NCBI GenBank assembly: GCA_032622095.1
Contig: CP136068.1
Span: 56,878,025 to 56,942,024, forward strand
Direction: 5' to 3'
DNA from: Siphonodentalium dalli
Lineage: Eukaryota; Mollusca; Scaphopoda; Gadilida; Siphonodentaliidae
DNA: 64,000 nucleotides
Shown here one piece after another: positions 24,740 to 48,681 of the stretch; position 1 is the first letter of the stretch; each line of letters begins with the position of its first letter. The notes under the pieces are model-generated. The model was not told the origin of the DNA. It did not search any database and saw only the letters and a list, made by a program, of their open reading frames with translations. Both the position numbers and the translations under genes were made by a program.

Positions 24740-27259
24740 TCTAATGTCCCCTTCCCCCGACTAGTTAGGAATTATGACAGAGGCAAATTCAACGAAGCTA
24801 TAAAGCTCATTAATGATCCAGAGTGGTTGCACGCTATCGAAACAGCACCCGACATAGACTTGGCGACTGATATTTTTACCACCAAATTTCTCGAAATTAT
24901 AGACCAAACTGTTCCACAATCAAAAGTTTTAATAAGACCTAAAGACAAACATTGGTTCACTTCAGAATTGAGAACGATGATTCGGGAAAGAGATAGACTG
25001 CGTAAAATTGCTTTGAAATCAAAAAAGGAAACTGACTTGTCCAAATTCAAAAAAGCTCGAAACACTGTCAATAACATGAAAAAATATGCCAGAGCCCGTT
25101 ATGAACAAACACTACAAAAAAATGTCCGTGAACACCCTTCCTCAAAATATTTCTGGCACTGTATAAAGGATATTATGCAAACTAAGGATAAGGGCGCTAT
25201 CCCCCCTCTAACTAATGGCAAAGGAAACTTAGTAATTGATGACCATACCATACGGTGCGTTCATCTCAAATTCAGAACTCGACGAATCGTCGTGCAGTTT
25301 ACCGATATTCACCCTGAAATGTAGTAACACAGTAACAGACATTGAATTCACTATCGATGATATCATTTCTGCTATTGGGACCCTGAAACCTAATAAAGCA
25401 TCTGGCCACGATGGAATTACAGTTAAAATGATCCAATACACAAGCCCAGCTATCGCCACCCCACTTAAAGCATTATTTGAAAAATTGCTTGAACTTTGTG
25501 CATTCCCAACACAATGGAAGCTCGCAAATGTTATCCCTATATACAAGAAAAATGACAAATCAAGCTGCAAAAACTACCGCCCAATATCCTTACTCCCATG
25601 CCTTAGCAAGATCTTAGAGAAAATTGTACTAAAATACTTAATGGTCCACTTTTCAAATAATGATATACTATATCAATACCAATCAGGGTTTGTTCCTGGA
25701 CATAGCACAACTTTCCAGTTACTCCAGATATACCACACCCTGTGCCAGGCCCTCGATGAGAAGTCAAATACGTCGGCAATTATTTGTGATATTTCCAAAG
25801 CATTTGAGAGAGTCTGGCACAGGGGGTTGTTATTCAAACTGGAACAATTCGGAATAGCCGGAAATGTCAACTGTTGGTTGAATAGCTATCTCTGTAACAG
25901 ATCACAACGCGTCCTAGTGGGTAAATCTTTCTCGGTTTATCGTAGTATCCCAGCAGAAGTCCCCCAGGGCTCAATTCTTGGACCTTTTTTTACGTATATA
26001 AACGACCTAGCAACGACAATACATTCCCTTACTCGTATGTACGCAGATGATACTTGCTTTGATGACTGTCACAACTTTGATGACTGTCACAACTTGATGA
26101 CTGTACACGCGAACTTTTTGAAGATCTGGATAGAGTTTCTTGTTGGTCGAAACAATGGTTGGTTACATTCAATGCAGACAAAACAAAATCAATGGTGTTC
26201 TCACTTACTCCCTCGACAGATTGTTTGGATCTCGAACTTGGTGATAACGAAATAGAGCAAGTTGACTGTCATAAACATCTTGGAGTATCTATACATTCGA
26301 ATCTTCATTGGGACACCCATATAAATGAAATTTGTAGCCGAGTGTCAACCAGACTGTCACAACTGAGGAGAATAAAATTTCTTGTAAATAGACTAACCCT
26401 CGAGATAATGTTCAAAACTTACGTACTTCCTATAATGGAGTACGGAGATGTTGTTTGGGATAATGCACCCGATTGCCTCCTCCGGAAACTCGACCGCCTG
26501 TATACAGACGCTGGTAGAATAGTAAGAGGTCTCACGCGCTCGGTGTCAGATGGAAAAGTCTTATTTGAACTTAGATGGCCTCCATTAAGCGAAAGACGAA
26601 ACCTCCATAAAATGCACACCTGGAACAAAATAATTGCTCATCATGTACCTTCTTACCTTACCAATCTATTACCAGCTACCGTCGCTGAAGCATCTCGATA
26701 CCCCATCAGAAACCCCTTGCGATACATAAACTACTTTACGAACACGACTCATTTCAAATCGAGTTTCGTCCCATCCATGATAGCTGAATGGAATATATCA
26801 TGTAAAACTACTACCGATAACAAAAACGTTGATGACCCCTCATCAGAACCAACTAAAGACGAAATCATAAGTTACATGTATAGAACATTCTGTAATAAAG
26901 AACTGACTTTGAAACCCCCACCATATTTCAATACAGGTCAAAGGAGATTAAATATTTTGCACTGTAGACTTAGAAATAACTGTAGCGACCTAAACTTTGA
27001 TAAATATGAAAACTACATCTCAGCTCATCCAAATTGTACTTGTGGAAATTCATGTGAAGACGCAAACCATTTTTTCTTCAGTTGTCCTATGTACGCAGAA
27101 GCGAGAAATCGGATGTGGGCTCGTATGAATGAACTTAACGTGACTATTGTCTCCGAAAAAGATCTCCTGTTTGGTGTACAACACTACAGAGGAAAGCTAA
27201 ATGCGCGCCTGTTTGAGACAGTACAATCATTTATCTCATCTACAGACCGTTTCTCTTAA
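24740..27259 (+). pseudogene. Reverse transcriptase ORF2 remnant, frameshifted
   Basis: Three segments in different frames cover one protein. Segment 1 (24740-~25230) is the basic linker ('KHWFTSELRTMIRERDRLRK'). Segment 2 (~25240-26100) carries 'KPNKASGHDGI', 'IPIYKK', 'NYRPISLLP', the palm A motif 'ICDISKAFERVWH', 'VPQGSILGP' and the catalytic 'YADD'. Segment 3 (~26100-27259) has 'FNADKTKSMVF', 'KHLGV' and a C-terminal 'CTCGNSCEDANHFFFSCP' cysteine/histidine motif typical of CR1/Jockey-type ORF2. Frameshifts lie near 25240 and near 26060-26105, where an 18-bp unit is tandemly duplicated. The usual LLFLIYINDL block reads FFTYINDL, two residues short. The element cannot encode an intact enzyme. 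Confidence 0.9.
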
Positions 27260-29369: not shown

Positions 29370-29769
29370 CATATAATACATACACTTTGTTTTGTAAACA
29401 AAAGCCAAAACAGTCACAGAACCTGGCTTTTGTTACATAACAAAGCGTACAAACTTGACAATAACATACTATATATTTACATATATGTATGATTGGTATA
29501 AGAATAAAATATATTTATATTTTTAATATTATTTTTTGTTTATGGCAGTTTTAACGACTGTGACTTTATTTCTTCGCAGCATATCCACAGCGAAAAACCA
29601 CCCGTGCCTTTAATGTGCCATACAAAACATCATTTTCTAAAATTTTCTCTGCACGTGTAATCATTATGATTCTACCTTTGTAATCATGACAAAAGTCCCC
29701 CTTCTATCAGTGTAACATATATAATGATTGAATTGAACTCTGAAGTCAGGAAAAATATTCTATTCACAG
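29370..29769. other. Intron or upstream sequence of the DOMON gene
   Basis: AT-rich, no repeat recognised; ends in a TTCACAG splice acceptor at 29769. I could not find an earlier exon. Confidence 0.45.
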
Positions 29770-29914
29770 GATTGGAGAACATGCGTGCGGACCAACTGAC
29801 TGCATTTACTTCCTTACCTACAAAAAGTCTCACGACATGTCTATGCTAGATTTGGAGATCCATGGGAAAACTGAAGGATGGGTGGCCATTGGCTTCTCGT
29901 CTGATCAACAAATG
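29770..29914 (+). CDS. Ferric-chelate reductase 1-like DOMON exon (first visible)
   Basis: The exon lies between an acceptor (TATTCACAG, 29769) and a donor (GTATGT, 29915). It enters with one base completing a split codon and leaves in phase 0. It reads 'IGEHACGPTDCIYFLTY', then 'GKTEGWVAIGFSSDQQM'. The Cys-rich start, the alternating beta-strand pattern and 'GWVAIGFSxDQxM' are signatures of the DOMON domain of FRRS1-type proteins, which bind haem or sugar on the non-cytosolic side; in FRRS1 the domain is followed by cytochrome b561 helices. It continues in phase into 30588. I infer the family, not the exact orthologue; no b561 exons are visible. Confidence 0.85.
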
Positions 29915-30587
29915 GTATGTGATTTTGAGAGAAAACATATTGGTTGCAAACATGGATTTCGTCTACACCCGCTATATCCTGCTTCCTTAATAGAGAAAAA
30001 TGTTCAATCGGCGCGATATAAACATCTTTGAAATTACTCTTTTTTTGGGGAAAGCATCGATAGTCGCTTTTTAGCTCAACTATACTTTGTAAAGTTGAGC
30101 TATTGGCATGGGTCGTATCCGTAGTTTGTGTGTGTGGTTCGGTTGGGTGTGTGCTCAAGTGCGCCCGTCAACAATTTCCATTAGCACGGGCTACATGGGT
30201 GCCTTTGGTGGGATCATTATGAATATTGTCATGGCTGTTGACATTGAAATGTAGTTGTGTCTGAGTCATTTTGGGGTCATTTGGCAAAAATACATGGGCG
30301 CCAGCGGCCATCTTGGATTTCAAAATTCAATCCATTAGAACGGGCTACAAGCCATACTGTTGAGATAACACGATTACCACAAGACTCCAACATATTCGTA
30401 TTCGTGTATTAGTAACATTGTATGGCGAGATAACCCGACCACCTTCAAGACCCCATGTACAGTGTATCTGTAACCGTGTATGAGATATAACACGAATACC
30501 ACCATGACTCAAATCTACAGTGAATGCATAGTCGTTCGGAATTGTAATGTTTTATTTCGTATATATACGTTGTTTCTTTGCACTCAG
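29915..30587 (+). other. Phase-0 intron of the DOMON gene
   Basis: A 673-bp intron with GTATGT donor and a CACTCAG acceptor. Its first ~610 bases are duplicated at 32425-32862 plus 40995-41155. Positions 30359-30364 (GTTGAG) are the paralogous empty site of the palindromic element. Confidence 0.85.
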
Positions 30588-31689: not shown

Positions 31690-32424
31690 GAACACGACTT
31701 TATATGAATGGACATAGCTTTATTCGCGCGGACACGACTATATTTGCACGGAAATGATTTTATTCGCGCCTCGCTGACATATGACTTTATACACGCACAT
31801 GCCTTTAATCAAGCGAGCAATACGCCTGTATTCGCATGGAGACACCTTTATTCACGCTGTCACGACTTTATTCGCGTGTACACGACTTTATTCGCGTCGT
31901 CACGACTTTATTCGTGTCGTCACAACTTTATTCACGTCGTCACGACTTTATTCACGTCGTCACGACTTTATTCCCGTCGTCATGAGATTATATTCGTGTC
32001 GTCACGACTTTATTCGCGTGTACACGACTTTATTCGCGTCGTCACGACTCTATTCGGGTCGTCACAACTTTATTCACGTCGTCACGACTTTATTCGCGTG
32101 TACACGACTTTATTCGCGTGTACACGACTTTATTCGCACTTTATTCGCGTGTTCACGACTTTATTCGCGTGTACACGACTTTGTTCGCGTCGTCACGACT
32201 GTATTCGTGTTGTCACTACTTTATTCACGTCATCGCGACTTTATATCCGCTGACACGGCTTTATTCGCTGCATGGGAACTATTTTATTCGCGTATACACT
32301 ATATTTTAGTCACGTATTTACACTACAGTTTATTGGCGTCTCGTGGATATGACTTTATTCGCTTTAACTCTACATTATTCGCATGGAAATGACATTATTC
32401 GCACGAAAACACGACTGATAAAAA
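31690..32424. repeat. 20-bp minisatellite, left block
   Basis: Tandem units of CACGACTTTATTCGCGTCGT-like sequence, 20 bp each. Three units make 60 bp, so all three frames stay open and give 20-residue periodic ORFs up to 203 codons; these are not genes. The same array resumes at 41156. Confidence 0.95.
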
Positions 32425-32862
32425 AAATGGTATGTGTTTTTGAGAGAAAACATATTGGTTGCAAACATGGATTTTGTCTACACCCGCTATATCCTACTTC
32501 CTTAATAGAGAAAAATATTCACATGGCGCGATATAAACATCTTTGAAATTAGTCTCTTTTTTTGGGAAAGCTTCGATAGTTACTTTTTAGCTCCACTATA
32601 CTTTGTAAAGTTTGAGCTATTGCCATGGGTTGGTGTCCGTAGTTTGTGTGGTGTGTGTGCGCACGTCAACAATTTCCATTAGCATGGGCTACATGAGTAC
32701 CTTTGGTCGGCTCATTATGAATTTTGTCATGGCTGTTGACATTGAAATATAGTTGTGCCTGAGTCATTTTGGGGTAATTTGTCCAAAAAAACATGGGCGC
32801 CAGCGGCCATCTTGGATTTCAAAATTCAATCCATTAGCACGGCTACAGGTTATACTGTTGAG
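32425..32862 (+). repeat. Duplicated DOMON-gene intron fragment, left part
   Basis: Matches 29911-30364, starting at the last exon codon (ATG) and the GTATGT donor. It ends in GTTGAG (32857-32862), the left copy of the palindrome's target duplication. The fragment continues at 40995. Confidence 0.9.
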
Positions 32863-34078
32863 AGAAGATATAGGGCCTCGTTAGACCCACATCTAAAAAT
32901 AGAATCTTTGGGTCTAAAATTGGTTGTACTAAAATATTCCTAAAATATCAAAAACCCAAAAAAAAAAATTCAAAACTTCAAAAATTTATTTTTTCCAAAA
33001 AATTTCAAAAACCCGAAAATTAATTTTTTCCACAAAAAATTTCCAAACTTCCAAATTATCAAAACCCCAAAATTTCAAAACCCTCAAAATTATTTCTCTA
33101 AAAAAAAAGGTTAAATAAAAAATTTATAACGAGTTTTTTCGGTTTCTGATAATCTCGATATTAAAAAATATCGAATGTTAAATTATTTGCTCGTAATATC
33201 TTTCGTTATTTTTTTGTTCAAATATTTTTCATGAATTTATTAATCGATGTTTAGAAATAGCTTTATTGGACATTGTGACCAACGGTATGAATGCATACAT
33301 TCCAGTGTTTTATCGGACGCAGTTCATATAATTGTCATACCTGAAAATAGACACTATTACTTTTTACATAAATAATAAAGAGCGTTTATTCTTTACACTC
33401 TCTCTATCCCATATGACAGGCGTGTATTTTCGTCAATTATTGGAAGTATTGAAATGTACTATGTTGAATCCCTAACGGTCGAAAATTGTAAGGCGAAATT
33501 ACAACCCCCCAGAATGAACTGTCATATTGAATGAATGATCATTTAATCTCAGCCATTTTTACATGGAACATGAGCGATGTACACTCAATCACACACGCCA
33601 CATTGGTGTTAACAATGTGTCTTTCACACCTTTGCTTTACCAAATGAATTATATTATTTCCCCGGTCACAGCTATATGGTATTCAGAAAACAAATCGATT
33701 TAGAACAAAACGAGTTAGTATCAATTAAGGTTGATAAACTGTGTCATTCACGCGATAATTAGTTATCCATAAAACATGCATACATATTACGTCAGGTCGT
33801 GAGACACTCAATTATGCAAATTGCTTTGATCACATTGTTATAACAACATTACGTAATAACCCCTTATCACTCCAGTCACACTTACGATCATTTTGTATAC
33901 CGAAAACTCCAGGTAGCACCGATGATGTAACATTATATCACTGCTATTGTGCCAATTATAGGTTCAGACATGTTCCATGTTTAGAAAAATAGATAATCTG
34001 CAGGTGTTCACTTGACAAGAAATTTTGTACACTCAATCACAGACCAACGTGATAATACCAGCCCACACCCAACCCCCA

Positions 34079-34137
34079 AGTTACCTATAATTCTGCTGTG
34101 GTTAAGCCACAACAACAACAACAACAACAACAACACC

Positions 34138-34180
<43 letters not shown>

Positions 34181-34333
34181 GTCACCAAGCGACATAACAT
34201 CCTGTTTTGATGATCCAATGGCCAATGTCCATAAAGATTTTATTTCCGATGCAAGTCATATTTCAGACTAACTCCTGAAAAGTTACCTATAATTATGCTG
34301 TGGTTAAGCAGTCCATTATTTAGGGCATACCTG
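34079..34333. repeat. M1-like MITE end plus zinc-finger 3' tail relic (left arm)
   Basis: Two M1-type right-end blocks ('AATTCTGCTGTGGTTAAGC' and one ending GGGCATACCTG) flank a (CAA)n run and 'CACCAAGCGACATAACATCC', which resembles the tail after the small C2H2 gene's polyglutamine tract. It is probably a rearranged copy of that region. The mirror lies at 39527-39778. Confidence 0.6.
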
Positions 34334-34925
34334 TATGTAGGCCTACCAGTGGATGAATAGTCTGCCGGAGAAGTACTGTGTAGACAGGTCTTGTCGGTAA
34401 GAAAGTCAGACGAGTAGTGAAGGCTCGGCTATTAAAACATAGTAATGCGATAGCGAACATCAAACGAGTCTGCGCACGCATATCTGTCAAAGGATACAAG
34501 GGCAGTCATTGGTCAATTTATCCCCGGTGTCAGCTCAGTACAATGGCAGTCATTGGTCAATTTATCCCCGGTGTCAGCTCAGTACACAATCGGCACGAAG
34601 CCGCAGGTCATAATTACTCTTACGAATGAAGAGCGTTGAACATATACGAAATTATTACACGAATGAACTGAAATTTATATTTCACATCTTACCAACAACA
34701 GATACAGACATAGTCATAGTGTTATATTATCTTACATGTACCCATGCTATCACATACTTAAAGGGGGATAATGCACACACGGTGTGTGGAATGTTAAAGT
34801 GACACGAGGGGTAAGGGACGTTATGTAATATTGATGTGTGAATATTAAAGGAGCATTCTCGCTATACAAACCCCCCTCCCCACTTATAGATATATAACGA
34901 AGACGAGAATAACATGTTGATGAAG

Positions 34926-34931
34926 TTTATT
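34926..34931 (-). terminator. Polyadenylation signal of left-arm 189-residue gene
   Basis: AATAAA on the minus strand, about 5 bases beyond the stop codon. The mirror is 38929-38934. Confidence 0.6.
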
Positions 34932-34936
34932 GAAAT

Positions 34937-35506
34937 TTAATCATTGTCTGAATCTTCGACCGTTAGATTTACTTCTAAGAGTTTCTTGAATTTTCTCATC
35001 GCTTCATCTGCAGCCCATTCATTATTATATCCGCGTTTGGTCAGTTTGACCATTTTCTTCATGATCGTGTTATGTATGGGTGATGTTTTCAATCGATACT
35101 GGTATTCTATTAATCGTCTATAACTTTTGAGAAACAGAACAAACTCTGTGTCGATGGTATCCTCTTTTCCCGACATGCTCTCATCTCCCGAAATGCTCTC
35201 TTCTTCTTTCACATCTTTGGTGACGCGTTTCATCATACTTTTGAATGTGTCCATCTCGTTGACACATCGCGCAGCTTTCTTAAGACCGAATACCGTTCTA
35301 CTACCGACGCCATTACCATCATCTGAATCTGATAGCGTTCCACGTTCATCTTCATCTGAATCTAGAACCGCTTCGTCAGATTCATCGGTATCTTCTCCGA
35401 AGAGAGTTGGTTTTGTCTCGGACATAACTCCGTGTTTAATCTGTTTATGTCTTTGTAGATTGTAGTTCGTCGATAAAATAATGCCACATAAATCACACCC
35501 GTGCAT
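34937..35506 (-). CDS. 189-residue C2H2 zinc-finger protein, left-arm copy
   Basis: Identical in sequence to the right-arm copy at 38354-38923. The N-terminus is a C2H2 finger (Cys4, Cys7, His20, His25). Residues ~38-62 are acidic (Asp/Glu/Ser-rich). Residues ~70-110 are mixed and charged. The C-terminal ~70 residues are basic and likely helical, ending in acidic 'VEDSDND'. It has no known enzyme domain; DNA or RNA binding is plausible from the finger. A TATAAGAG box lies at 35534-35541 and AATAAA follows the stop. The identity of the copies means the arms are young or homogenised by gene conversion. Confidence 0.75.
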   Translation of the reverse strand: MHGCDLCGIILSTNYNLQRHKQIKHGVMSETKPTLFGEDTDESDEAVLDSDEDERGTLSDSDDGNGVGSRTVFGLKKAARCVNEMDTFKSMMKRVTKDVKEEESISGDESMSGKEDTIDTEFVLFLKSYRRLIEYQYRLKTSPIHNTIMKKMVKLTKRGYNNEWAADEAMRKFKKLLEVNLTVEDSDND

Positions 35507-35533
35507 TATCGCGAATTATTGGAAGAACCATCA

Positions 35534-35541
35534 CTCTTATA
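35534..35541 (-). promoter_or_regulatory. TATAAGAG box, left-arm 189-residue gene
   Basis: TATAAGAG on the minus strand, 27 bases before the ATG. Mirror of 38319-38326. Confidence 0.5.
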
Positions 35542-35694
35542 AGTAGCGATAAAAAGAGAGAATAAGTTGTGGTATACAACCGTCGCTCTAAGAGTACGTT
35601 CGTCCCGGGGCTAGGGTATAGATATTTGACCGCCGGTGATTCAATTAATGCCAATTTATCAGTATGGTACTCTATGTATTCATTCATGATTTGG

Positions 35695-36018
35695 CTAATC
35701 GTATGACACTGATCTTTTCATTTTCTTCTTATTATTAGACAAACCTCCATCAGACACTCTCTTGTTGGTTTGTTTGGACGCTTTACGTGTGTTTGTCAAC
35801 TTATTTGCTGCAACTTCTGCTTTGGCCATTTCAATCGCTTGCGCTAGGGGTGTCACCACGTTAATAATTGGTTTTAGAACGTCTTCTTCACTATCACTAG
35901 TTTTAGTTTTGTCAATAAAGTAGCGACCCTCATTATCTGGCGTTAACTTCCCATCAACCATATCTCTGAAATGTTTTCTCCACATTTCAATATCGGCTGG
36001 AATATACGTGATCGACAT
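35695..36018 (-). CDS. 107-residue basic-tailed protein, left-arm copy
   Basis: Identical to the right-arm copy at 37842-38165. The N-terminus 'YIPADIEMWRKHFRDMV' looks like a short amphipathic helix with conserved-type Trp and His-Phe; the middle is acidic ('TSDSEEDV') and the C-terminus is Lys/Arg-rich ('NNKKKMKR'). No known domain. I have a vague memory of similar short 'Trp..His-Phe' proteins in animal Polinton-like elements, which is not evidence. A TATAAGAGA box at 36077-36085 precedes it. Confidence 0.65.
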   Translation of the reverse strand: MSITYIPADIEMWRKHFRDMVDGKLTPDNEGRYFIDKTKTSDSEEDVLKPIINVVTPLAQAIEMAKAEVAANKLTNTRKASKQTNKRVSDGGLSNNKKKMKRSVSYD

Positions 36019-36076
36019 GTTTCTTCAAAATGTACAGGTCACTCTTTTTTCTGCATTTATTTTAGAAAGTTTATCG

Positions 36077-36085
36077 TCTCTTATA
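36077..36085 (-). promoter_or_regulatory. TATAAGAGA box, left-arm 107-residue gene
   Basis: TATAAGAGA on the minus strand, about 60 bases before the ATG. Mirror of 37775-37783. Confidence 0.5.
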
Positions 36086-36226
36086 AAAATCGATTATTGG
36101 CCATGAATGCCAAATGCACCATGATAGTTATCGATGTCAATAATGCGTTTCGTTGAGATCTTGATTGAGTATGCACCAATCAATGAGCAAATAAATGAGC
36201 AAGCAGGATGTTATTCGCTTGGTGGC

Positions 36227-36275
<49 letters not shown>

Positions 36276-36303
36276 GGGGGTGATGATACTGTTGTTGTTG
36301 TTG

Positions 36304-36441
36304 TTATTGTTGTGGCTGATGATACTGTTGTTGTTGCTGTTGTTGTTGTTGTTCTGAAGGCGTGTGTTTAACTTTGATATGACGCTTCAAACTATCTTGC
36401 CAAGCATATACACTTAAGCACTCTTCACATTGATACTTCAT
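36304..36441 (-). CDS. 45-residue C2H2 polyglutamine protein, left-arm copy
   Basis: One classical finger (Cys5, Cys8, His21, His26) followed by a nine-residue polyglutamine tract and an ochre stop. Beyond the stop the frame continues through more CAA codons to a second stop, so the stop may be a CAA-to-TAA mutation that truncated a longer protein. The same stop is present in the other arm. The length of the following CAG/CAA tract differs slightly between arms. Confidence 0.6.
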   Translation of the reverse strand: MKYQCEECLSVYAWQDSLKRHIKVKHTPSEQQQQQQQQQYHQPQQ

Positions 36442-36618
36442 TTAACTAGTTCAGGCTGTCGTTCACAACGTCTCTTAGTGTTGTTTGTACTGGATACAAA
36501 TTTATCACATTAGCTACAATACAACCTACCTATCCAAATGTCAATGCAATTATGAGTGATTTCAATATGAACACTCTATTATATAGATATGTGTAACCTG
36601 GTGACTGACATGATGATA

Positions 36619-36761
36619 CAGTTATGCACTAAATAAAGGACTGCTTAACCACAGCAGAATTATAGGTAACTTTTCAGGAGTTAGTCGGAAATATGGCTTG
36701 TTGCCATTCATCGGAAAGCTCTCGCCGCCGGCGGATGTTGTTGGCGGCGGCATTGCGGTGG

Positions 36762-36797
<36 letters not shown>

Positions 36798-36853
36798 GAC
36801 GCCGGCGGCGCCGGCGGCGGCGGCGGCATTGCAGTATTTTTACTGCGGGGGTC

Positions 36854-36884
<31 letters not shown>

Positions 36885-36969
36885 ATTGCAGTATTTTACT
36901 GCGGCGGCGGTGCCGCCGCCGCCGCCGGGGTCCGCCGCCGGCGGACCCCCGCAGTAAAAATACTGCAAT

Positions 36970-37010
<41 letters not shown>

Positions 37011-37238
37011 ACCCCCGCAGTAAAAATACTGCAATGCCGCCGCCGCCGCCGGCGCCGCCGGCGTCACAACATCAACAACAACAACAACAACAACACCACC
37101 GCAATGCCGCCGCCAACAACATCCGCCGGCGGCGAGAGCTTTCCGATGAATGGCAACAAGCCATATTTCCGACTAACTCCTGAAAAGTTACCTATAATTC
37201 TGCTGTGGTTAAGCAGTCCTTTATTTAGTGCATAACTG
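36619..37238. mobile_element. Long M1-type MITE at the palindrome axis (620 bp)
   Basis: The ends CAGTTATGCACTAAATAAAG and complement are flanked by TA (36617-36618, 37239-37240), with the shared family block 'CTTAACCACAGCAGAATTAT'. Between the ends are long mirror tracts of (GTT)n and (CGG/GCC)n. The axis of the whole palindrome (36930-36938) lies in this MITE. Long Ala/Gly/Pro/Gln ORFs across it come from triplet repeats and are not genes. Confidence 0.8.
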
Positions 37239-37415
37239 TATCATCATGTCAGTCACCAGGTTACACATATCTATATAATAGAGTGTTCATATTGAAATCA
37301 CTCATAATTGCATTGACATTTGGATAGGTAGGTTGTATTGTAGCTAATGTGATAAATTTGTATCCAGTACAAACAACACTAAGAGACGTTGTGAACGACA
37401 GCCTGAACTAGTTAA

Positions 37416-37553
37416 ATGAAGTATCAATGTGAAGAGTGCTTAAGTGTATATGCTTGGCAAGATAGTTTGAAGCGTCATATCAAAGTTAAACACACGCCTT
37501 CAGAACAACAACAACAACAGCAACAACAACAGTATCATCAGCCACAACAATAA
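37416..37553 (+). CDS. 45-residue C2H2 polyglutamine protein, right-arm copy
   Basis: ATG at 37416; finger Cys5-x2-Cys8-x12-His21-x4-His26, then Gln31-Gln39 and a TAA stop at 37551. After the stop the frame stays open through CAA codons to a second TAA at 37647-37649, ending 'PPSE'. A TATATAATAGAG element at 37273-37284 may be its promoter, although it is 130 bases upstream. It is the innermost gene of the arm, followed by the 107- and 189-residue genes on the same strand. A nucleic-acid-binding role is inferred from the finger only. Confidence 0.6.
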   Translation: MKYQCEECLSVYAWQDSLKRHIKVKHTPSEQQQQQQQQQYHQPQQ

Positions 37554-37581
37554 CAACAACAACAACAGTATCATCACCCCC

Positions 37582-37633
<52 letters not shown>

Positions 37634-37774
37634 GCCACCAAGCGAATAACATCCTGCTTGCTCATTTATTTGCTCATTGATTGGTGCATACTCAATCAAG
37701 ATCTCAACGAAACGCATTATTGACATCGATAACTATCATGGTGCATTTGGCATTCATGGCCAATAATCGATTTT

Positions 37775-37783
37775 TATAAGAGA
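37775..37783 (+). promoter_or_regulatory. TATAAGAGA box, right-arm 107-residue gene
   Basis: TATAAGAGA lies 58 bases before the ATG at 37842. The same core precedes the 189-residue gene, so the two probably share a promoter class. Confidence 0.5.
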
Positions 37784-37841
37784 CGATAAACTTTCTAAAA
37801 TAAATGCAGAAAAAAGAGTGACCTGTACATTTTGAAGAAAC

Positions 37842-38165
37842 ATGTCGATCACGTATATTCCAGCCGATATTGAAATGTGGAGAAAACATTTCAGAGATAT
37901 GGTTGATGGGAAGTTAACGCCAGATAATGAGGGTCGCTACTTTATTGACAAAACTAAAACTAGTGATAGTGAAGAAGACGTTCTAAAACCAATTATTAAC
38001 GTGGTGACACCCCTAGCGCAAGCGATTGAAATGGCCAAAGCAGAAGTTGCAGCAAATAAGTTGACAAACACACGTAAAGCGTCCAAACAAACCAACAAGA
38101 GAGTGTCTGATGGAGGTTTGTCTAATAATAAGAAGAAAATGAAAAGATCAGTGTCATACGATTAG
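37842..38165 (+). CDS. 107-residue basic-tailed protein, right-arm copy
   Basis: The ATG at 37842 is chosen because a TATAAGAGA box lies just upstream and the frame has no earlier start. The product has an N-terminal amphipathic segment with Trp13, His16 and Phe17, an acidic serine-rich middle (~residues 40-46) and a Lys/Arg-rich tail (~residues 78-102) that could bind nucleic acid. The 64-codon frame that follows (38173-38367) overlaps the next promoter and start, and I reject it as a gene. Function unknown. Confidence 0.65.
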   Translation: MSITYIPADIEMWRKHFRDMVDGKLTPDNEGRYFIDKTKTSDSEEDVLKPIINVVTPLAQAIEMAKAEVAANKLTNTRKASKQTNKRVSDGGLSNNKKKMKRSVSYD

Positions 38166-38318
38166 CCAAATCATGAATGAATACATAGAGTACCATACTG
38201 ATAAATTGGCATTAATTGAATCACCGGCGGTCAAATATCTATACCCTAGCCCCGGGACGAACGTACTCTTAGAGCGACGGTTGTATACCACAACTTATTC
38301 TCTCTTTTTATCGCTACT

Positions 38319-38326
38319 TATAAGAG
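38319..38326 (+). promoter_or_regulatory. TATAAGAG box, right-arm 189-residue gene
   Basis: TATAAGAG ends 27 bases before the ATG at 38354. A TATA-directed start at the usual ~30 bases would leave almost no 5' leader. Confidence 0.5.
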
Positions 38327-38353
38327 TGATGGTTCTTCCAATAATTCGCGATA

Positions 38354-38923
38354 ATGCACGGGTGTGATTTATGTGGCATTATTTTATCGACGAACTACAA
38401 TCTACAAAGACATAAACAGATTAAACACGGAGTTATGTCCGAGACAAAACCAACTCTCTTCGGAGAAGATACCGATGAATCTGACGAAGCGGTTCTAGAT
38501 TCAGATGAAGATGAACGTGGAACGCTATCAGATTCAGATGATGGTAATGGCGTCGGTAGTAGAACGGTATTCGGTCTTAAGAAAGCTGCGCGATGTGTCA
38601 ACGAGATGGACACATTCAAAAGTATGATGAAACGCGTCACCAAAGATGTGAAAGAAGAAGAGAGCATTTCGGGAGATGAGAGCATGTCGGGAAAAGAGGA
38701 TACCATCGACACAGAGTTTGTTCTGTTTCTCAAAAGTTATAGACGATTAATAGAATACCAGTATCGATTGAAAACATCACCCATACATAACACGATCATG
38801 AAGAAAATGGTCAAACTGACCAAACGCGGATATAATAATGAATGGGCTGCAGATGAAGCGATGAGAAAATTCAAGAAACTCTTAGAAGTAAATCTAACGG
38901 TCGAAGATTCAGACAATGATTAA
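38354..38923 (+). CDS. 189-residue C2H2 zinc-finger protein, right-arm copy
   Basis: A single C2H2 finger begins at residue 4 ('CDLCGIILSTNYNLQRHKQI'; Cys4, Cys7, His20, His25). An Asp/Glu/Ser-rich stretch spans ~38-62 and a second acidic-serine patch ~105-120. A helical basic C-terminal part (~125-180) holds 'SYRRLIEYQYRLKTSPIH'. The architecture (N-terminal finger, acidic linker, basic helical end) looks like a small virus-like regulatory or packaging protein, but no family is identified. AATAAA at 38929 follows the stop, and a TATAAGAG box precedes the start. It is the gene nearest the element's right terminus. Confidence 0.75.
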   Translation: MHGCDLCGIILSTNYNLQRHKQIKHGVMSETKPTLFGEDTDESDEAVLDSDEDERGTLSDSDDGNGVGSRTVFGLKKAARCVNEMDTFKSMMKRVTKDVKEEESISGDESMSGKEDTIDTEFVLFLKSYRRLIEYQYRLKTSPIHNTIMKKMVKLTKRGYNNEWAADEAMRKFKKLLEVNLTVEDSDND

Positions 38924-38928
38924 ATTTC

Positions 38929-38934
38929 AATAAA
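38929..38934 (+). terminator. Polyadenylation signal, right-arm 189-residue gene
   Basis: AATAAA five bases after the stop codon. Confidence 0.6.
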
Positions 38935-39526
38935 CTTCATCAACATGTTATTCTCGTCTTCGTTATATATCTATAAGTGGGGAGGGGGGTTTGTATAGCG
39001 AGAATGCTCCTTTAATATTCACACATCAATATTACATAACGTCCCTTACCCCTCGTGTCACTTTAACATTCCACACACCGTGTGTGCATTATCCCCCTTT
39101 AAGTATGTGATAGCATGGGTACATGTAAGATAATATAACACTATGACTATGTCTGTATCTGTTGTTGGTAAGATGTGAAATATAAATTTCAGTTCATTCG
39201 TGTAATAATTTCGTATATGTTCAACGCTCTTCATTCGTAAGAGTAATTATGACCTGCGGCTTCGTGCCGATTGTGTACTGAGCTGACACCGGGGATAAAT
39301 TGACCAATGACTGCCATTGTACTGAGCTGACACCGGGGATAAATTGACCAATGACTGCCCTTGTATCCTTTGACAGATATGCGTGCGCAGACTCGTTTGA
39401 TGTTCGCTATCGCATTACTATGTTTTAATAGCCGAGCCTTCACTACTCGTCTGACTTTCTTACCGACAAGACCTGTCTACACAGTACTTCTCCGGCAGAC
39501 TATTCATCCACTGGTAGGCCTACATA

Positions 39527-39679
39527 CAGGTATGCCCTAAATAATGGACTGCTTAACCACAGCAGAATTATAGGTAACTTTTCAGGAGTTAGTCTGAAAT
39601 ATGACTTGCATCGGAAATAAAATCTTTATGGACATTGGCCATTGGATCATCAAAACAGGATGTTATGTCGCTTGGTGAC

Positions 39680-39719
<40 letters not shown>

Positions 39720-39778
39720 GGTGTTGTTGTTGTTGTTGTTGTTGTTGTGGCTTAACCACAGCAGAATTATAGGTAACT
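39527..39778. repeat. M1-like MITE end plus zinc-finger tail relic (right arm)
   Basis: Mirror of 34079-34333; its (CAA)n tract is one triplet shorter. Confidence 0.6.
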
Positions 39779-40994
39779 TGGGGGTTGGGTGTGGGCTGGT
39801 ATTATCACGTTGGTCTGTGATTGAGTGTACAAAATTTCTTGTCAAGTGAACACCTGCAGATTATCTATTTTTCTAAACATGGAACATGTCTGAACCTATA
39901 ATTGGCACAATAGCAGTGATATAATGTTACATCATCGGTGCTACCTGGAGTTTTCGGTATACAAAATGATCGTAAGTGTGACTGGAGTGATAAGGGGTTA
40001 TTACGTAATGTTGTTATAACAATGTGATCAAAGCAATTTGCATAATTGAGTGTCTCACGACCTGACGTAATATGTATGCATGTTTTATGGATAACTAATT
40101 ATCGCGTGAATGACACAGTTTATCAACCTTAATTGATACTAACTCGTTTTGTTCTAAATCGATTTGTTTTCTGAATACCATATAGCTGTGACCGGGGAAA
40201 TAATATAATTCATTTGGTAAAGCAAAGGTGTGAAAGACACATTGTTAACACCAATGTGGCGTGTGTGATTGAGTGTACATCGCTCATGTTCCATGTAAAA
40301 ATGGCTGAGATTAAATGATCATTCATTCAATATGACAGTTCATTCTGGGGGGTTGTAATTTCGCCTTACAATTTTCGACCGTTAGGGATTCAACATAGTA
40401 CATTTCAATACTTCCAATAATTGACGAAAATACACGCCTGTCATATGGGATAGAGAGAGTGTAAAGAATAAACGCTCTTTATTATTTATGTAAAAAGTAA
40501 TAGTGTCTATTTTCAGGTATGACAATTATATGAACTGCGTCCGATAAAACACTGGAATGTATGCATTCATACCGTTGGTCACAATGTCCAATAAAGCTAT
40601 TTCTAAACATCGATTAATAAATTCATGAAAAATATTTGAACAAAAAAATAACGAAAGATATTACGAGCAAATAATTTAACATTCGATATTTTTTAATATC
40701 GAGATTATCAGAAACCGAAAAAACTCGTTATAAATTTTTTATTTAACCTTTTTTTTTAGAGAAATAATTTTGAGGGTTTTGAAATTTTGGGGTTTTGATA
40801 ATTTGGAAGTTTGGAAATTTTTTGTGGAAAAAATTAATTTTCGGGTTTTTGAAATTTTTTGGAAAAAATAAATTTTTGAAGTTTTGAATTTTTTTTTTTG
40901 GGTTTTTGATATTTTAGGAATATTTTAGTACAACCAATTTTAGACCCAAAGATTCTATTTTTAGATGTGGGTCTAACGAGGCCCTATATCTTCT

Positions 40995-41155
40995 GTTGAG
41001 ATAACACGATTACCACAAGACTCCAACATATTCGTATATTCGTAACATTGTATGGCGAGATAACCCGACCACCTTCATGACCCCATGTACAGTGTACCTG
41101 TAACCGTGTATGAGATATAACACGAATACCACCATGACTCCAATCTACAGTGAAA
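40995..41155 (+). repeat. Duplicated DOMON-gene intron fragment, right part
   Basis: Begins GTTGAG (40995-41000, right target duplication) and matches 30359-30523 up to 'CAATCTACAGTGA'. The minisatellite then resumes. Confidence 0.9.
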
Positions 41156-42552
41156 ACGACTTTATTCACATGAAGACGACTTTAATCAAAACAAATTTAT
41201 TCACGTGAATACAACTTTATTTACATACAACTTTATTCACGCAGACACGACTTTATTCACGTGAACAACAGGTCTGTATTAGCATGCATGGAAGATCTAT
41301 TCGCATAGACACGACTTTATTCGCGTCTTCACGACTTTATCCATGCATGTCGTCACGACTTTATTCACGTGGACACGGCTGTATTCGTGTAGTCACACGA
41401 CTTCATTCGCATGGATACAACATTATTCGTGTCGTCATGCACGACTTTATGATTTTGTTCCCGCGAACCCGGCTTCAGTAGCAGGGGACTATATTTTTCG
41501 CGTATATACACTATATTGTATTCGCGTATGTATACACTATATACTTTATTAACGTCTCGTATCGTATTCACGACTTTATTCGCGGACATCGAACGTTATT
41601 CGAGCGAATTCGACTTCAATTGCGCATATATAAACGCTTTTATTTGCATATATATATACACACTCCTCTATTTGCGATGACACGACTTTGGAGACGATTT
41701 CATTCGCGTAGGCAGACTGTATTTGTGTGGATACGACTTTATTCGCCGAAACGCGACTTTATTCACATGGAAACGACGTTATTCGTGTGGAAACAACTGT
41801 ATTGGTGTTGCACTACTTTATTCGAATTTCGTGGACTCGACTTTATTCGCACGAAAACGCGACTTTGTTCCCGTGGACACGACTATATTCGTATGGAAAC
41901 GACTTTATTAGCATCAACACGACTTTATTCGTATTGACACGACTTTACCCCCGTGGTTACGACTATATTCGTATTGAAACGATTTTATTCCCGTTGATAC
42001 GACTATATTCGTATAAGGAAACGGCTTTATTCCCATGTACATGACTAAATTCGTATGGAAACGACTTTATTCACATCAACACGACTTTATTCGTATGGAC
42101 ACGACTTTACTCCCGTGGTTGCGACTATATTCGAATGGAAACTATTTTATTCCCGTTGACAAGACTATATTCGTATGGAAACGGTTTTATTCCCGTGGTT
42201 ACGACTATAGATATTCGTATGGAAACGACTTTATTCGCATCAACATGACTATATTCCCGTGGACACGACTTTATTCCCCTGGACACGACTTTATTCCCGT
42301 GGACACGACTTTATTCACGTGGACACGACTTTATTCCGTGGACACGACTTTATTCACGTGGACACGACTTTATTCAAATGGAGATGACTTTAATCGTGTA
42401 GATACTACTTTATTCACGTCTCGTGAAAACGACTTATTCACATGAAAACAAATTTATTCACGTGAAGACAACTTTATTCACGACTTTATTTACATATATA
42501 CAACAAACTTTTTTCACGCAGACACGACTTTATTCACGTGAACAACACACGT
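41156..42552. repeat. 20-bp minisatellite, right block
   Basis: CACGACTTTATTC-type units, more diverged than the left block, many with 'GGAAACGACTTTATTCG' or 'GGACACGACTTTATTC'. ORFs of 105-136 codons over it are artefacts. Confidence 0.93.
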
Positions 42553-42577: not shown

Positions 42578-43949
42578 TAATTGCAGGAAAACATAAAAAT
42601 CGTTCACTTTGTGATAGAAGCGCCAAACTTTCAGAATTAGTTAAGTGGTTGGTGAGTATCACTAAACTGGCTGGTTCCAGATTTTGGAGGTCACCTTGAT
42701 CTTCAATTTGACCTTGACCTTTTTGAAAATCTCAGTTTTTGGGTTGGGTGGTTTATGCCATCCTTTTCTTGTGAAAATCGCATCTTCTCACAGTTTTCTC
42801 AATACAGTTATAGTTGGGAGGTGACCACGGTTCATTTGGGCCAAAACATATCTAATTTTCATAAGATGGCCGCCAATATGGCCGCCGGAAGTTGAAAATA
42901 TGACATTTTTTCACAAATATCTCCTAGTTCAATTCATGCTGTTTGGAACTGGTTGAGTAATGCAACTTTATTTTGTGTTTTGTATATTAACTGATCATTG
43001 ATCATTAAATATGCAATTATTGGGGTCCTAACCCCTTCCAATCCCTCAAAAATTTGATTTTACAGAACGCGGTACAAAATTTTACCAAAAAATCACAATT
43101 GGGATTCTAGTCATATTTCAACTAGAAATGAAAAGAACATTGTAATGCAAGTGAGGCATATCATTACCTATGAATATTCCAACTCTCTGGAACCAAACAT
43201 CTTACCTTGGCTCAAAATGGCTGCCAAAATGGCCGCCAAAATAAGGAAAATTGTAAATATTGCACCAGGGTGTCATTCAATTGCTTACAAGTTGTGGTTG
43301 ATGTTCAAAATTGGCTAATCTGTATTCTATACATTGAATACTAACATGTCTGATACACCATGTGTCATTGTTACTATTGTCACCACTGACATCACCAGAT
43401 ATATTGGATTTTTCTCTCACAAACTTGACATATATATCGGCAAAAAAATCACTTTTCAGGGTTCGACCAATTTTTCAAATAAAATGCAACTACCTTTGGT
43501 ATCAAATGTGTTTATTGTTTTGACCTATCTTAAATGTGTCGCACTATGGTGTTTATAGACTAAATTGCTCAAGATGGCTTCCAAAATGGCAACCAAATTT
43601 GTAAAAAGTTAATTTTTTACACATATCCAGAAAATTATTCTCTGCGTTATCCGAAAAGGTAGCAAATTGTGACTCACTTGGTTATTATACCTGTTAGTTA
43701 ATTAACTGACAACTATGTTCTATTATGTTTATCCTAGATCCGTATGGGGCATGACAAATTCATTTTAAAGTTGCAGTATGGAATTTTGCGGATAACCTCT
43801 TTTGTGATTATGGCCATATTATTGAAAGGAAATGGGCATAACTTTGAGACGGAACAGAGATGAACCATGAGATGTGGGTAGTCTGGCCCATTATGATAAA
43901 AATTTATCAACTGGATACAGGGTGGAAGCCAAGATGACAGCCAGGGAGT

Positions 43950-46345
43950 TACTCTATGATCGTAGATGAGGATAATAGGTATACCGCGAGTTATTGTATG
44001 GTCATGGATGATGTGTGGGTATATTGGGAGTGCCCTGTTGGCAACGGTGGGTTATATATTTATGTATGTTGTGGATGTGTTATCATTGATGGTGTATGGG
44101 GAGTAGATGCATGATCATGAGTATGGCAAGTGTGGAACTTATGAGAGGTCGTATGTGCGGGTATTGGTATATCTGGAAGGGCTCACTATTGGTGAAGTGC
44201 ATATGTATACCTGGATTGACTCTATGGTAATGGATATGGCGAATAGTATACATGTAGTGGCTGTATAGTCCATGGTGAGGTGAATAGGATTACAACGGTT
44301 GACCGTATGATCGTGAATGTAGTGAATATGTATACATAGAGTGACTATATGGCCATGTGTCGGGTGTATGTGTATACCTGGTGTCCATACATGGTGACTC
44401 GTGGCTGTATCGTCATTTGTGGTATGTACGGGTATAACCAAGAATGGCTGTATGATCAGGTGTACGTGTATAAAGTGGGTGACTGTGTTGTCATTTGTGT
44501 TGTGTTTATGTACATATGGAGTGACTGAGGTAATGGGTGGATTGTATATGTGTACCTTGGGTGGCACAATAACTCAAGGATATGTTAATCAATGGAGAGG
44601 TCAAGTCAGAGAGTTCTCTCTATCTTGATGGTGTTTATATACATGGGGGGGGGGCGTAAAACACGGAAAACGATGGCCACCTATTACCACACAGTCATTA
44701 CATATATACATAAACACCACAGACATAACAATATAGTGACCCACTGTATACATGTACACCTGACCCATGACCACGGGTGACCTTACAGCCACGCGTCACG
44801 ATACAGGCACACCGGGGATACTCATAAACATGACCGATAACCATATAGTCATTCCTTGTATACCCATTCAGCTCACCATTGGCCATAAGGTCATCCCCTG
44901 TATACATATTCTCCAAACACGTGGTCAAATAGACAATCAATATATATATCAACAATGACCATAAAGTTACTCCGGGTATACATATGCACCTCACCAATGG
45001 CCATATAGCCACTCGCTTCATACACATACCTTCACCAATGGTACCTGACCTATGGTCATATAGTCACACCGTGTGTACCTATTCAAAACATTCATAAACG
45101 ACCATGGTCAATTCTTGCATACATATTCACCTCAACATTGGCCATGTCACTCCCTGTATCCCTATTTGTCACACCATAGCCGCATAGTCACTCAAGATAT
45201 ACTAATACACCATAGCTATGTCAGTATAGTCACTCCATGTATGCATATGCACTTTATCCATGGACATATAGCCACTTGCTATATACACATATCCCTTGCC
45301 CATGACAATAAAGCAACACATGTGTAAACTGGTATAACCTACACATGATCATACCGCCACGAGTCACCAAATAGGAACACCAGGTATACTCATACGCCTG
45401 ACACATGACCATTTTAATAGTCACCTCCTGTATAGATGTCCATTATATTTATGACCATACAGTCACTACTTGTATACCTACATGTACTCATCTCACCATT
45501 GACCATACATTCACTACATGTATACATATATCGACAGACATAGTCATATAACCACTCGATATACATATACAGCCCACCCTAGACCATAGATTCACTCCAA
45601 GCATACAAGTAAACCTCATTAATGGCCATTCAGCCCTTCCAGATATACACACAATCACTCAAACAATCCATACTTGCATATACACCTCACACATGACAAT
45701 TCAGCAATTCACTGTATAATCATACATGCCATCCATGATGATACAGCTAATCCCTATACACCCACCAATGATAATACATCCATGAGATATATAAATATGC
45801 ATCCCACCCGTCACCACAAGGACACTCCCTATATACCCACACACTCGATAATGTCCACCCAGCTTACTCCAGGTAATCATATTCAATCATGACCGTACAG
45901 TCATTCGCTGTATACCTATACCCATTACCCGTAACCATAAAATCACACCCTATTTACCAACACACCCATCCATGATCATACAGACAACACATGTACATCC
46001 CACCCATGCCCTTACAGTCACTCCGTATATACATAATCAACACATAGATGACCATGTAGCTATATCCATACACACACCAATGCCCATACAGGCACACCTG
46101 GTGCACCCGTACTGGATATACACAATCATACACCATACAGTCACTCCATGCATACCGATTCACCTCACACCTGACCATGACATTTCCTTGTACACATAGA
46201 TGCATCTTACAATGGACAACCCACTCATAACAATATAGTCACTCATTGTATACCTATTCACATAAGTCATGACATACAATAACTCACTGTATACCTATTC
46301 ACCTCATGTATGATCATAGAGTAACTCCCTGGCTACGATCTTGGC
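43950..46345. repeat. Inverted degenerate minisatellite, ~60-bp unit
   Basis: Units such as 'CATATAGTCACTCC...TGTATACATATTCACCTCACC' run in one direction right of ~44640 and in reverse to its left. All ORFs here (up to 142 codons) are repeat translations. Confidence 0.8.
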
Positions 46346-47599
46346 ATCCACACTGTATTCAGTTGACATTTTCTTAGCATAATGGACCAGAATAGCCAAA
46401 TATTATGGTCCATCTCAATTCTGTCTCAAAGTTCTGCCCATTTCCTTTCAATAACTATGGCCAAAATCACAAAAGAGGTGCTCGGCAAAATTACATACTT
46501 TAAAATGAATACGGAAGTGGGACAACCAGAATAGAACATTTAGTTGTCAGTTAATTAACTAACACGTATAATAACCAAGCGAGTCACATTTTGCTACATT
46601 TTCGGATAATACAGAGAATGTTCGGGATATATGTAAAAAAAATTAACATTTTACAAATTTGGTTGCCATTTTGGAAGCCATCTTGAGCAATTTGGTCTAT
46701 AAACACCGTAGTGAGACACATTTAAGATAGACCAAAACAATAAACACCTTTCAATCCAAAGATAGTTATATTTTACCTGAAAAAATGGTCCAAACCTGAA
46801 AAGTTAATTTTTGCCAATATTTATGTCAAGTTTTTGAGAGAAAAGTCCAATATTTTTGACGATGTCAGTAGTGACAATAGTAACAATTAACCATGGTGCA
46901 TCAGACATGTTAGTATTCAATGTATAGAATGCAGAATTGCCCATTTTATACATCAACCACAACTTGCAAACGATTGCAGGAGACGCTGGTGGAATATTTA
47001 CCATTTTCCATATTTTGGCGGCCATATTGGCAGCCAATTTGAGCCAAAGTAAGAATTTTGGTTCTAGTGATTTGGAATATTCATAGATAATGATATGTCT
47101 CACTTACATTACAAAGTTATGTTCATTTCTTGTTGAAATATGACTAGAATCCCAATTGTGATTTTTTTTGTGAAATTTTATACCGCATCCTGTAAAATCG
47201 AAGTTTTGAGGGATCGGAAGGGGCTAGGACCACAATAATTGCATATTTAATTGCTCCAATGGTCGGTTAATATAACAAGAAATTCAATTAATTGAGGAAA
47301 AACACCCACTGTCCCGAGTGGTATTGTTAAGCTATTGGAGGGTCTTCCACTTCGCATGCAAAATAGCAAAATATTATTAATTGATGACTGATGTACATGT
47401 ACAGTACACACATAGTAATAACAATTAACGTTATGATTTGAAACTAACCATGATAGGATATTGACAGTAAGGTGGTATTAACTACTACGAGTGGTATTAG
47501 TAATAATAGTACCATTCTAGCATAATATATGTGTACATGATGTATGGGAAATATTAAAGGACAAAACAATAGTTACAATACAATTAGAACCTTTTTTTT

Positions 47600-48085: not shown

Positions 48086-48552
48086 ATTCCTTAAGTTATT
48101 GCAGTTAATCGAAATTGTCTATTAAATGTCAAGTTGGTTTCCCATAGAGATCATCAACGATGTCTATGCGCAAGGGACCTACGCCAGTCTTCTCTGTTGG
48201 GATTCCAATTGTTGGCTTATTAAATACAGTATGCACATATGCTTAAGATACAGTTGTGCACGAAGCGCGCTCCCGTATGTCGGGTTTTGGATCCCAGTGA
48301 ATTAAAATATCATTGAAATAATCGGTTTCCCCCTCCCCCCAATAAACATCCATATATTGAATATACATGTTTTTGGAGCAGAATTAGATAGTCCATATTG
48401 GACACCATCATGGAATTTAATTTTTTTATTTAATTTTCACACATAGTTATTAGTTATGTGGAATCGTGGATGGCGTTATCATTAAACATCACACCCTTAT
48501 ATTGATTATGTGGATAGAGTTATCATTAAACCTCACATCCTTATATTGGTTA

Positions 48553-48681
48553 CAGTAATGCCCAAAGTAATTGACCACTTAACCACAGCATAATTATTGG
48601 TAATTTTTCAGGATTTAAAAGCCTGAAAAATTACCCATAATTCTGCTGTGGTTAAGTGGTCAATTACTTTGGACATTACTG
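48553..48681. mobile_element. TA-target MITE family M1, copy 2 (129 bp)
   Basis: CAGTAATGCCC...GGACATTACTG flanked by TA (48551-48552, 48682-48683). It inserted into the 45-bp minisatellite; the unoccupied unit in copy A ('GCATAACCAATATAAGG', near 983) shows the single TA. The arms share 'CCACTTAACCACAGCA'. Confidence 0.9.

What the first reader, a model, noticed from the sequence alone, without database searches (positions are those of the whole stretch)
32863..40994. An 8.1-kb perfect-armed palindrome with 6-bp target duplication and a preserved empty site
Seen: inverted arms of ~4 kb, AG...CT termini, GTTGAG on both sides, and the same site uninterrupted at 30359-30364 in the paralogous intron. 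Known: Polintons/Mavericks make 6-bp duplications and start with AG. Inferred: an integrated symmetric genome built from one end of a Polinton-like element, comparable to symmetric defective genomes known for protein-primed adenoviruses. No core Polinton gene is present.
Basis: partly seen in the sequence, partly recalled or inferred. Interest (0 to 1): 0.92.

Follow-up and report, generated by a model that had tools for sequence, protein, structure and literature searches.

The report
Integrated mirror-image, Polinton-like element
An animal chromosome carries an 8.1-kb mirror-image piece of mobile DNA, inserted with the footprint of virus-like Polintons; it looks like one end of such an element, copied back on itself at a hairpin, which would make it a rare trace of how these elements replicate outside the chromosome.

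Summary
Observation confirmed. 32863-40994 is two inverted ~4.0-kb arms without a spacer (99.6% identical; one substitution in 3867 columns outside the centre), with an exact 6-bp duplication GTTGAG and an uninterrupted paralogous site at 30359-30364 (632-column alignment across the junction, 88.8%). It is a true insertion, hardly a fold-back read. Termini are (AGA)2...(TCT)2, a doubled short motif of the kind reported for vertebrate Mavericks, with the Polinton TSD length; of the 6-bp-TSD groups I checked in print, only Polintons begin AG. The arms carry small ORFs, two with a C2H2 finger; no core Polinton gene was recognised.

New here: the symmetry axis lies inside a nested MITE-like unit (36617-37240) whose GC-rich half is the strongest hairpin former of the arm. 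Best model: an inverted repeat in a linear, probably protein-primed genome caused strand switching, giving a one-end palindrome that was integrated in trans. Inverted repeats are reported to rearrange replicating adenovirus vectors.

Polinton ancestry is inferred, not shown: no homologue was found, and the host-genome search did not complete (15 tries). Rivals: in-situ gap repair of a full element; a TIR-only transposon of another superfamily.

The parts
32857..32862 (.). left target-site duplication GTTGAG
   Evidence: direct reading and empty-site alignment
40995..41000 (.). right target-site duplication GTTGAG
   Evidence: direct reading and empty-site alignment
32863..36938 (+). left arm, from terminus (AGA)2 to the axis of symmetry
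   Evidence: 99.6% inverted match to right arm
36938..40994 (-). right arm, mirror image of the left
   Evidence: 99.6% inverted match to left arm
36927..36949 (.). axis of symmetry: 10-bp stem with a 3-base centre (GGGGTCCGCC-GCC-GGCGGACCCC)
   Evidence: stem scan
36617..37240 (.). nested MITE-like unit spanning the axis, ends TACAGTTATGCAC / GTGCATAACTGTA, GC-rich triplet-repeat interior
   Evidence: same family as stand-alone copies at 4982-5119 and 48551-48683
36901..36925 (.). GC-rich hairpin ending two bases from the axis stem; lies mostly in the 23 extra bases of the left arm
   Evidence: only stem of 9 bp or more with a loop of 12 or less in 32863-36938; centre alignment
34078..34335 (+). 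second, partial copy of the MITE family in the left arm, with a (CAA)n tract
39525..39779 (-). mirror copy of the partial MITE in the right arm
   Evidence: terminal motif at 39525-39537 and inner motifs at 39552-39578 and 39751-39777
34937..35506 (-). 189-aa ORF, N-terminal C2H2 finger and acidic middle (left arm)
38354..38923 (+). 189-aa ORF, right-arm copy
35695..36018 (-). 107-aa ORF with basic tail (left arm), no family found
   Evidence: searches made with the right-arm copy
37842..38165 (+). 107-aa ORF, right-arm copy
35493..35687 (-). 64-aa ORF (left arm), coding status uncertain
38173..38367 (+). 64-aa ORF, right-arm copy
36304..36441 (-). 45-aa ORF with C2H2 finger and polyglutamine (left arm)
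   Evidence: mirror of 37416-37553, position worked out by hand from the arm alignment and the sequence
37416..37553 (+). 45-aa ORF with C2H2 finger (zf-H2C2_5 E 3.5e-4, below Pfam cut-off)
29898..30524 (+). paralogous empty site (uninterrupted GTTGAG at 30359-30364)

Best explanation
It is a symmetric, gene-poor derivative of one end of a linear Polinton/Maverick-class element. Shown: it is a mirror-image insertion with identical termini, one exact 6-bp duplication and a known empty site, and the mirror axis is inside a nested hairpin-forming MITE-like unit. Inferred, step 1: a host MITE had inserted about 4 kb from one end of the parent element. Step 2: while the parent replicated as a linear molecule, probably by protein priming at the repeated terminal triplet with strand displacement, single-stranded DNA folded at the MITE, the polymerase switched strands and copied the same arm back to its own terminus, giving an 8.1-kb genome with two identical ends and none of the core genes. 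Step 3: integrase supplied in trans by a full-length relative joined both ends to the chromosome with a 6-bp stagger.
For: (a) True insertion: exact 6-bp duplication and uninterrupted paralogue. (b) End anatomy: terminus is a doubled triplet beginning AG, (AGA)2//(TCT)2. Vertebrate Mavericks have (AGT)2//(ACT)2 or (AG)3//(CT)3 ends and 6-bp TSDs (PMC8097293, section 7 read, passages). Chance of an AG start with a doubled triplet at a fixed boundary is about 1/1000 (arithmetic, post hoc). (c) Other 6-bp-TSD groups have different ends: IS3EU TA..TA, GingerRoot TA..TA or TG..CA, Ginger2 TGTNR, Dada no terminal inverted repeats (passages). (d) Mechanism: axis within the MITE-like unit 36617-37240. 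The three innermost of 199 windows of the left arm are its most stable ssDNA hairpins, -41.5 to -47.8 against a median of -7.2 kcal/mol. The half-unit alone, without its mirror partner, folds at z = -6.85, 0 of 100 shuffles as good. The only compact stem of the arm ends 2 bases from the axis stem. [quoted passage not shown] (f) Genes: a longest ORF of 189 aa or more in 1 of 1000 dinucleotide shuffles; 2 C2H2 motifs against a mean of 0.03 in 300 shuffles. Zinc-finger regulator genes occur in some adintoviruses (PMC11071296, passage) and accessory ORFs flank the core modules of most intact vertebrate Mavericks. (g) Uniform near-identity of the arms from the very terminus inward fits one event at or just before a recent insertion.
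Against: No pPolB, integrase, ATPase, protease or capsid gene recognised in the 13 arm ORFs scanned. No homologue of the 189-aa or 107-aa ORF in the protein database or in viral contigs, and no terminus match in viral contigs. The parent was not seen: the own-genome search did not complete in 15 tries. (AGA)2 is not literally one of the three vertebrate end motifs. Arms of 4 kb exceed the 46-1447-bp vertebrate TIR range. A single copy cannot show that the palindrome itself, rather than a precursor, was the integrating molecule. The axis hairpin evidence is partly circular: GC-rich triplet tracts are hairpin-prone in any model, and the 100% identity of the two ends of the axis unit follows from the palindrome itself.
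Confidence: 0.48

Rival explanations
1. Made in place: a full-length Polinton-type element inserted first; later a break inside it was repaired from its own left end, starting in the right terminal repeat and copying the left arm inward until the MITE hairpin, replacing the right part by a mirror copy.
For: Gives the same structure with the same TSD. Breaks near inverted repeats drive inverted duplications in yeast (PMC10622511, abstract only). Long TIRs of Galileo are proposed to attract recombination and conversion (PMC3573991, passages).
Against: The outermost kilobase, which would be the old and not re-copied terminal repeats, is as identical as the inner part (no difference before 34137). 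The yeast fold-back pathway described in the abstract leads to dicentric chromosomes, not TSD-bounded inserts. Weak discrimination if the insertion was recent.
Confidence: 0.17
2. A TIR-only (Foldback-like, '2T') non-autonomous cut-and-paste transposon of a superfamily other than Polinton, mobilised by a transposase elsewhere.
For: Elements made only of long TIRs are known, e.g. Galileo (passages), and that paper calls TIR length unreliable for classification. No Polinton gene recognised here.
Against: Galileo has 7-bp TSDs. The 6-bp groups checked have other termini. Arms carry ORFs with two zinc fingers, which I would not expect in a Foldback arm (own judgement).
Confidence: 0.2
3. Assembly or library artefact: fold-back (template-complement) reads or a collapsed repeat made a one-armed element look double.
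For: Long spacer-free palindromes are a known artefact type (recalled), and no reads were available.
Against: A fold-back read would mirror the flank too; here the two flanks differ and the TSD and empty site fit exactly. The arms differ by whole microsatellite units, one substitution and 23 bases beside the axis.
Confidence: 0.05

Closest known systems
Polinton/Maverick elements
   Same: 6-bp TSD; termini beginning AG with a short motif repeated (PMC8097293; 6 bp for Polinton also in PMC10045372, passage)
   Different: 8.1 kb instead of 12.7-24.6 kb; arms of 4 kb instead of 46-1447-bp TIRs (vertebrate ranges); no core gene recognised; exact letters (AGA)2 not among the three vertebrate motifs
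Adenovirus vector genomes rearranged at inverted repeats
   Same: A linear genome in which internal inverted repeats lead to replication-induced rearrangement (PMC2518115 passage)
   Different: Adenovirus has no integrase and leaves no TSD (recalled); details of the cited 1999 study are recalled, as the paper is not held
Symmetric adenovirus 12 recombinants (SYREC) and the pGKL1-derived inverted-dimer plasmid F1
   Same: Symmetric linear DNAs made from one end of a protein-primed replicon (recalled)
   Different: Episomal, not integrated; both recalled from memory, and no listed title or 37 treats them
Galileo '2T' and Foldback transposons
   Same: Elements consisting only of long inverted repeats (PMC3573991 passages)
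   Different: P-superfamily, 7-bp TSD; internally repetitive TIRs; no ORF-bearing spacer-free arms in the passages seen
Adintoviruses
   Same: Some carry zinc-finger regulator genes (PMC11071296 passage)
   Different: None of their defining genes (PolB, hexon, rve integrase) was recognised here

Membership tests
Polinton/Maverick | 6-bp target-site duplication | tested here: met
Polinton/Maverick | inverted termini beginning AG with a repeated short motif | tested here: met
   (AGA)2//(TCT)2; same kind as but not identical to (AGT)2 or (AG)3, and one vertebrate species has (AC)3A instead
Polinton/Maverick | protein-primed DNA polymerase B, rve integrase, ATPase, protease, capsid genes | tested here: not met
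   no Pfam match in 13 arm ORFs scanned other than weak C2H2 fingers and one chance-level hit; so not filed as a Polinton proper, only as a likely derivative
Polinton/Maverick | full-length parent sharing the terminus in the same genome | not testable with these tools
   own-genome search not answered in 15 tries
Polinton/Maverick | size 12.7-24.6 kb, TIR 46-1447 bp (vertebrate range) | tested here: not met
   8.13 kb, arms about 4.0 kb (range)
Galileo/Foldback (P superfamily) | 7-bp TSD | tested here: not met
   TSD is 6 bp (7 bp from passages)
IS3EU/GingerRoot, Ginger2, LTR elements | TA..TA, TG..CA or TGTNR termini | tested here: not met
   termini AGAAGA..TCTTCT (end letters of IS3EU, GingerRoot and Ginger2 from passages; TG..CA for LTR elements recalled)
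Dada | no terminal inverted repeats, insertion in small-RNA genes | tested here: not met
   long inverted arms; no Rfam match at gathering scores in the window; features from passages
Adintovirus | OTU-PolB, hexon, chromodomain integrase | tested here: not met
   (13 arm ORFs); definition from passage

The most novel reading that the evidence does not exclude
A chromosomally fixed, defective-interfering-type genome of a Polinton: a symmetric one-end molecule born by strand switching at a nested MITE during protein-primed replication outside the chromosome, then integrated by a helper's integrase. It would be a fossil of the extrachromosomal linear stage of Polintons, and possibly a satellite that carries zinc-finger regulators in two copies.
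Probability: 0.4. Interest if true: 0.85.

Novelty: new variant of a known kind. Interest (0 to 1): 0.64.

Why it matters
Protein-primed, extrachromosomal replication of Polintons is inferred from their polymerase (own knowledge; PMC6431247 passage, names the protein-primed PolB). A symmetric one-end genome is a product expected from strand-displacement replication of a linear molecule and hard to get from cut-and-paste. [quoted passage not shown] I found no description of such an element: one search returned 0 papers, and no title among the 20 of 62 listed or the 10 of 26 listed describes one; the library holds open-licence PMC papers only.

Tried and rejected
Fold-back read artefact: held unlikely because the two flanks differ, the TSD is exact and the arms differ by whole repeat units. 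Two head-to-head insertions of a 4-kb element: rejected, because the axis unit 36617-37240 has no copy of the AGAAGAT terminus on either strand. Chance ORFs: rejected for the 189-aa ORF and the two zinc fingers; the 64-aa ORF stays uncertain, and 53 of 1000 shuffles had a longest ORF of 107 aa or more, so the 107-aa ORF alone is not significant. Homologue searches that led nowhere: protein database, viral contigs by protein and by terminus DNA, solved structures (none; one chance hit at E 1.7), PHROGs (one hit of unknown function at E 0.089), AlphaFold2 of the 189-aa ORF without an alignment (mean pLDDT 43, discarded), Rfam (none at gathering scores). Paper searches listed no title on symmetric adenovirus or pGKL1-derived genomes (11 of 11, 15 of 643, 10 of 137 and 15 of 20 hits seen).
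Full report
What was checked. The window looks like animal DNA (inference): a DOMON-like exon (29744-30028, Pfam E 6e-7, just below Pfam's own cut-off), a reverse transcriptase (25236-26252, RVT_1 E 1.2e-22) and many tandem arrays. The claimed palindrome is there. Aligned with gaps, the arms match over 4025 columns at 99.63%. Outside the last ~190 bases of each arm I count one substitution in 3867 columns and two indels of one CAA/TGT unit. Ten of the 13 groups of differences lie in the last ~180 bases before the axis, as TGT and CGG units, single substitutions and 23 extra bases in the left arm. The termini are AGAAGATATAGGG, mirrored on the right, and GTTGAG stands directly outside both.

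Empty site. Joining the flanks with one copy of GTTGAG gives a sequence that aligns without a break to 29898-30524 (632 columns, 88.8%), with the uninterrupted GTTGAG at 30359-30364. This shows insertion with a 6-bp stagger into one of two paralogous stretches. It also argues against a fold-back read, which would have mirrored the flank.

Whose ends are these? The first six bases are one triplet twice, (AGA)2. In vertebrate Mavericks the ends are most often (AGT)2//(ACT)2, commonly (AG)3//(CT)3, and in one species (AC)3A//T(GT)3; intact elements have 6-bp TSDs, TIRs of 46-1447 bp and sizes of 12.7-24.6 kb (PMC8097293, passages, section 7). A doubled triplet at the very end is what protein-primed replication with slide-back would need (recalled from adenovirus and phage work, not tested here). 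Other 6-bp groups fit worse by their reported ends: IS3EU TA..TA, GingerRoot TA..TA or TG..CA (PMC10045372 passages), Ginger2 TGTNR (PMC2836005 passages), Dada without TIRs (PMC3706591 passages). Galileo, a well-studied TIR-only element, has 7-bp TSDs (PMC3573991 passages).

What the arms contain. From the terminus inward: about 400 AT-rich bases (22-25% GC), about 1.6 kb in which I recognised no gene and which holds a partial MITE copy, then ORFs read outward. These are a 189-aa protein with one N-terminal C2H2 finger, a 64-aa ORF, a 107-aa ORF with a basic tail, and a 45-aa ORF with a second C2H2 finger followed by glutamines. Both finger matches are below Pfam's cut-offs (E 0.004 and 3.5e-4). 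A longest ORF of 189 aa or more appears in 1 of 1000 dinucleotide shuffles; two canonical C2H2 motifs compare with a mean of 0.03 in 300 shuffles. On its own a 107-aa ORF is not significant (53 of 1000 shuffles). Neither the 189-aa nor the 107-aa ORF has a homologue in the collections searched. No core Polinton gene was recognised in the 13 arm ORFs scanned; shorter ORFs were not scanned. Zinc-finger regulators are mentioned for some adintoviruses (PMC11071296 passage), which is compatible but weak.

The axis. Comparison of the arm with the rest of the window found an interspersed repeat. Two stand-alone copies, 4982-5119 and 48551-48683, are MITE-like: TACAGTAATG(C/T)CC inverted ends with TA at the boundary. 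The element carries a partial copy in each arm and, at its centre, a unit 36617-37240 with the same kind of ends (TACAGTTATGCAC). Its outer 69 and 62 bases are 85.5% and 82.3% identical to the two host copies. The mirror axis, 36938, is inside this unit, in a GC-rich triplet tract. Among 199 windows of the left arm the three innermost form by far the most stable DNA hairpins. The half-unit alone folds with z = -6.85 (0 of 100 shuffles as good). The only compact stem of the arm, 36901-36925, ends two bases from the axis stem and lies mostly in the 23 bases missing from the right arm. So the place where the copy turned round is the place where single-stranded DNA of this arm would most readily fold. 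The limit of this argument: the arm necessarily ends there, and the GC-rich tract would be hairpin-prone under any model.

Mechanism. I infer that a MITE inside a linear replicating parent acted as the inverted repeat for a strand switch, giving a molecule with two copies of the same end, which an integrase supplied in trans inserted. [quoted passage not shown] Symmetric adenovirus 12 recombinants and the pGKL1 inverted-dimer plasmid are recalled parallels that no listed title in the library treats. The step 'Polinton parent' is inference from the ends. The step 'replicated outside the chromosome' is inference from symmetry: an in-place repair of an integrated element could also give it, though the outermost kilobase is as identical as the rest, as expected if everything was made at once.

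What is missing. So I do not know whether full-length relatives or further palindromes exist. That single search would decide between the main readings.

Verdict. I rate it a new variant of a known kind: a TIR-only, mirror-image derivative with Polinton-type ends.

Noticed in passing
4982-5119 and 48551-48683: Two stand-alone near-palindromic MITE-like repeats (138 and 133 bp) with TACAGTAATG(C/T)CC ends; the same family is nested three times in the palindrome (one axis-spanning, one partial per arm).
   Followed up: partly
32881-32917 (and mirror): A 9-bp stem (TTAGACCCA / TGGGTCTAA) 18 bases inside each terminus could form a terminal hairpin (folded as DNA).
   Followed up: no
13716-23634: About 10 kb of dispersed and tandem repeats with roughly 122-base periodicity; the listed pairs are 89-99% alike.
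   Followed up: no
31846-32268 and 41689-42415: Arrays of a 20-bp unit with the core CGACTTTATTCGC on either side of the insertion.
   Followed up: no
42980-44023 and 46249-47278: A second, more diverged inverted pair: about 1.05 kb at 84% identity.
   Followed up: no
61222-64000: Tandem array with a unit of about 485 bases running off the window end (97.8% identity between offset copies).
   Followed up: no
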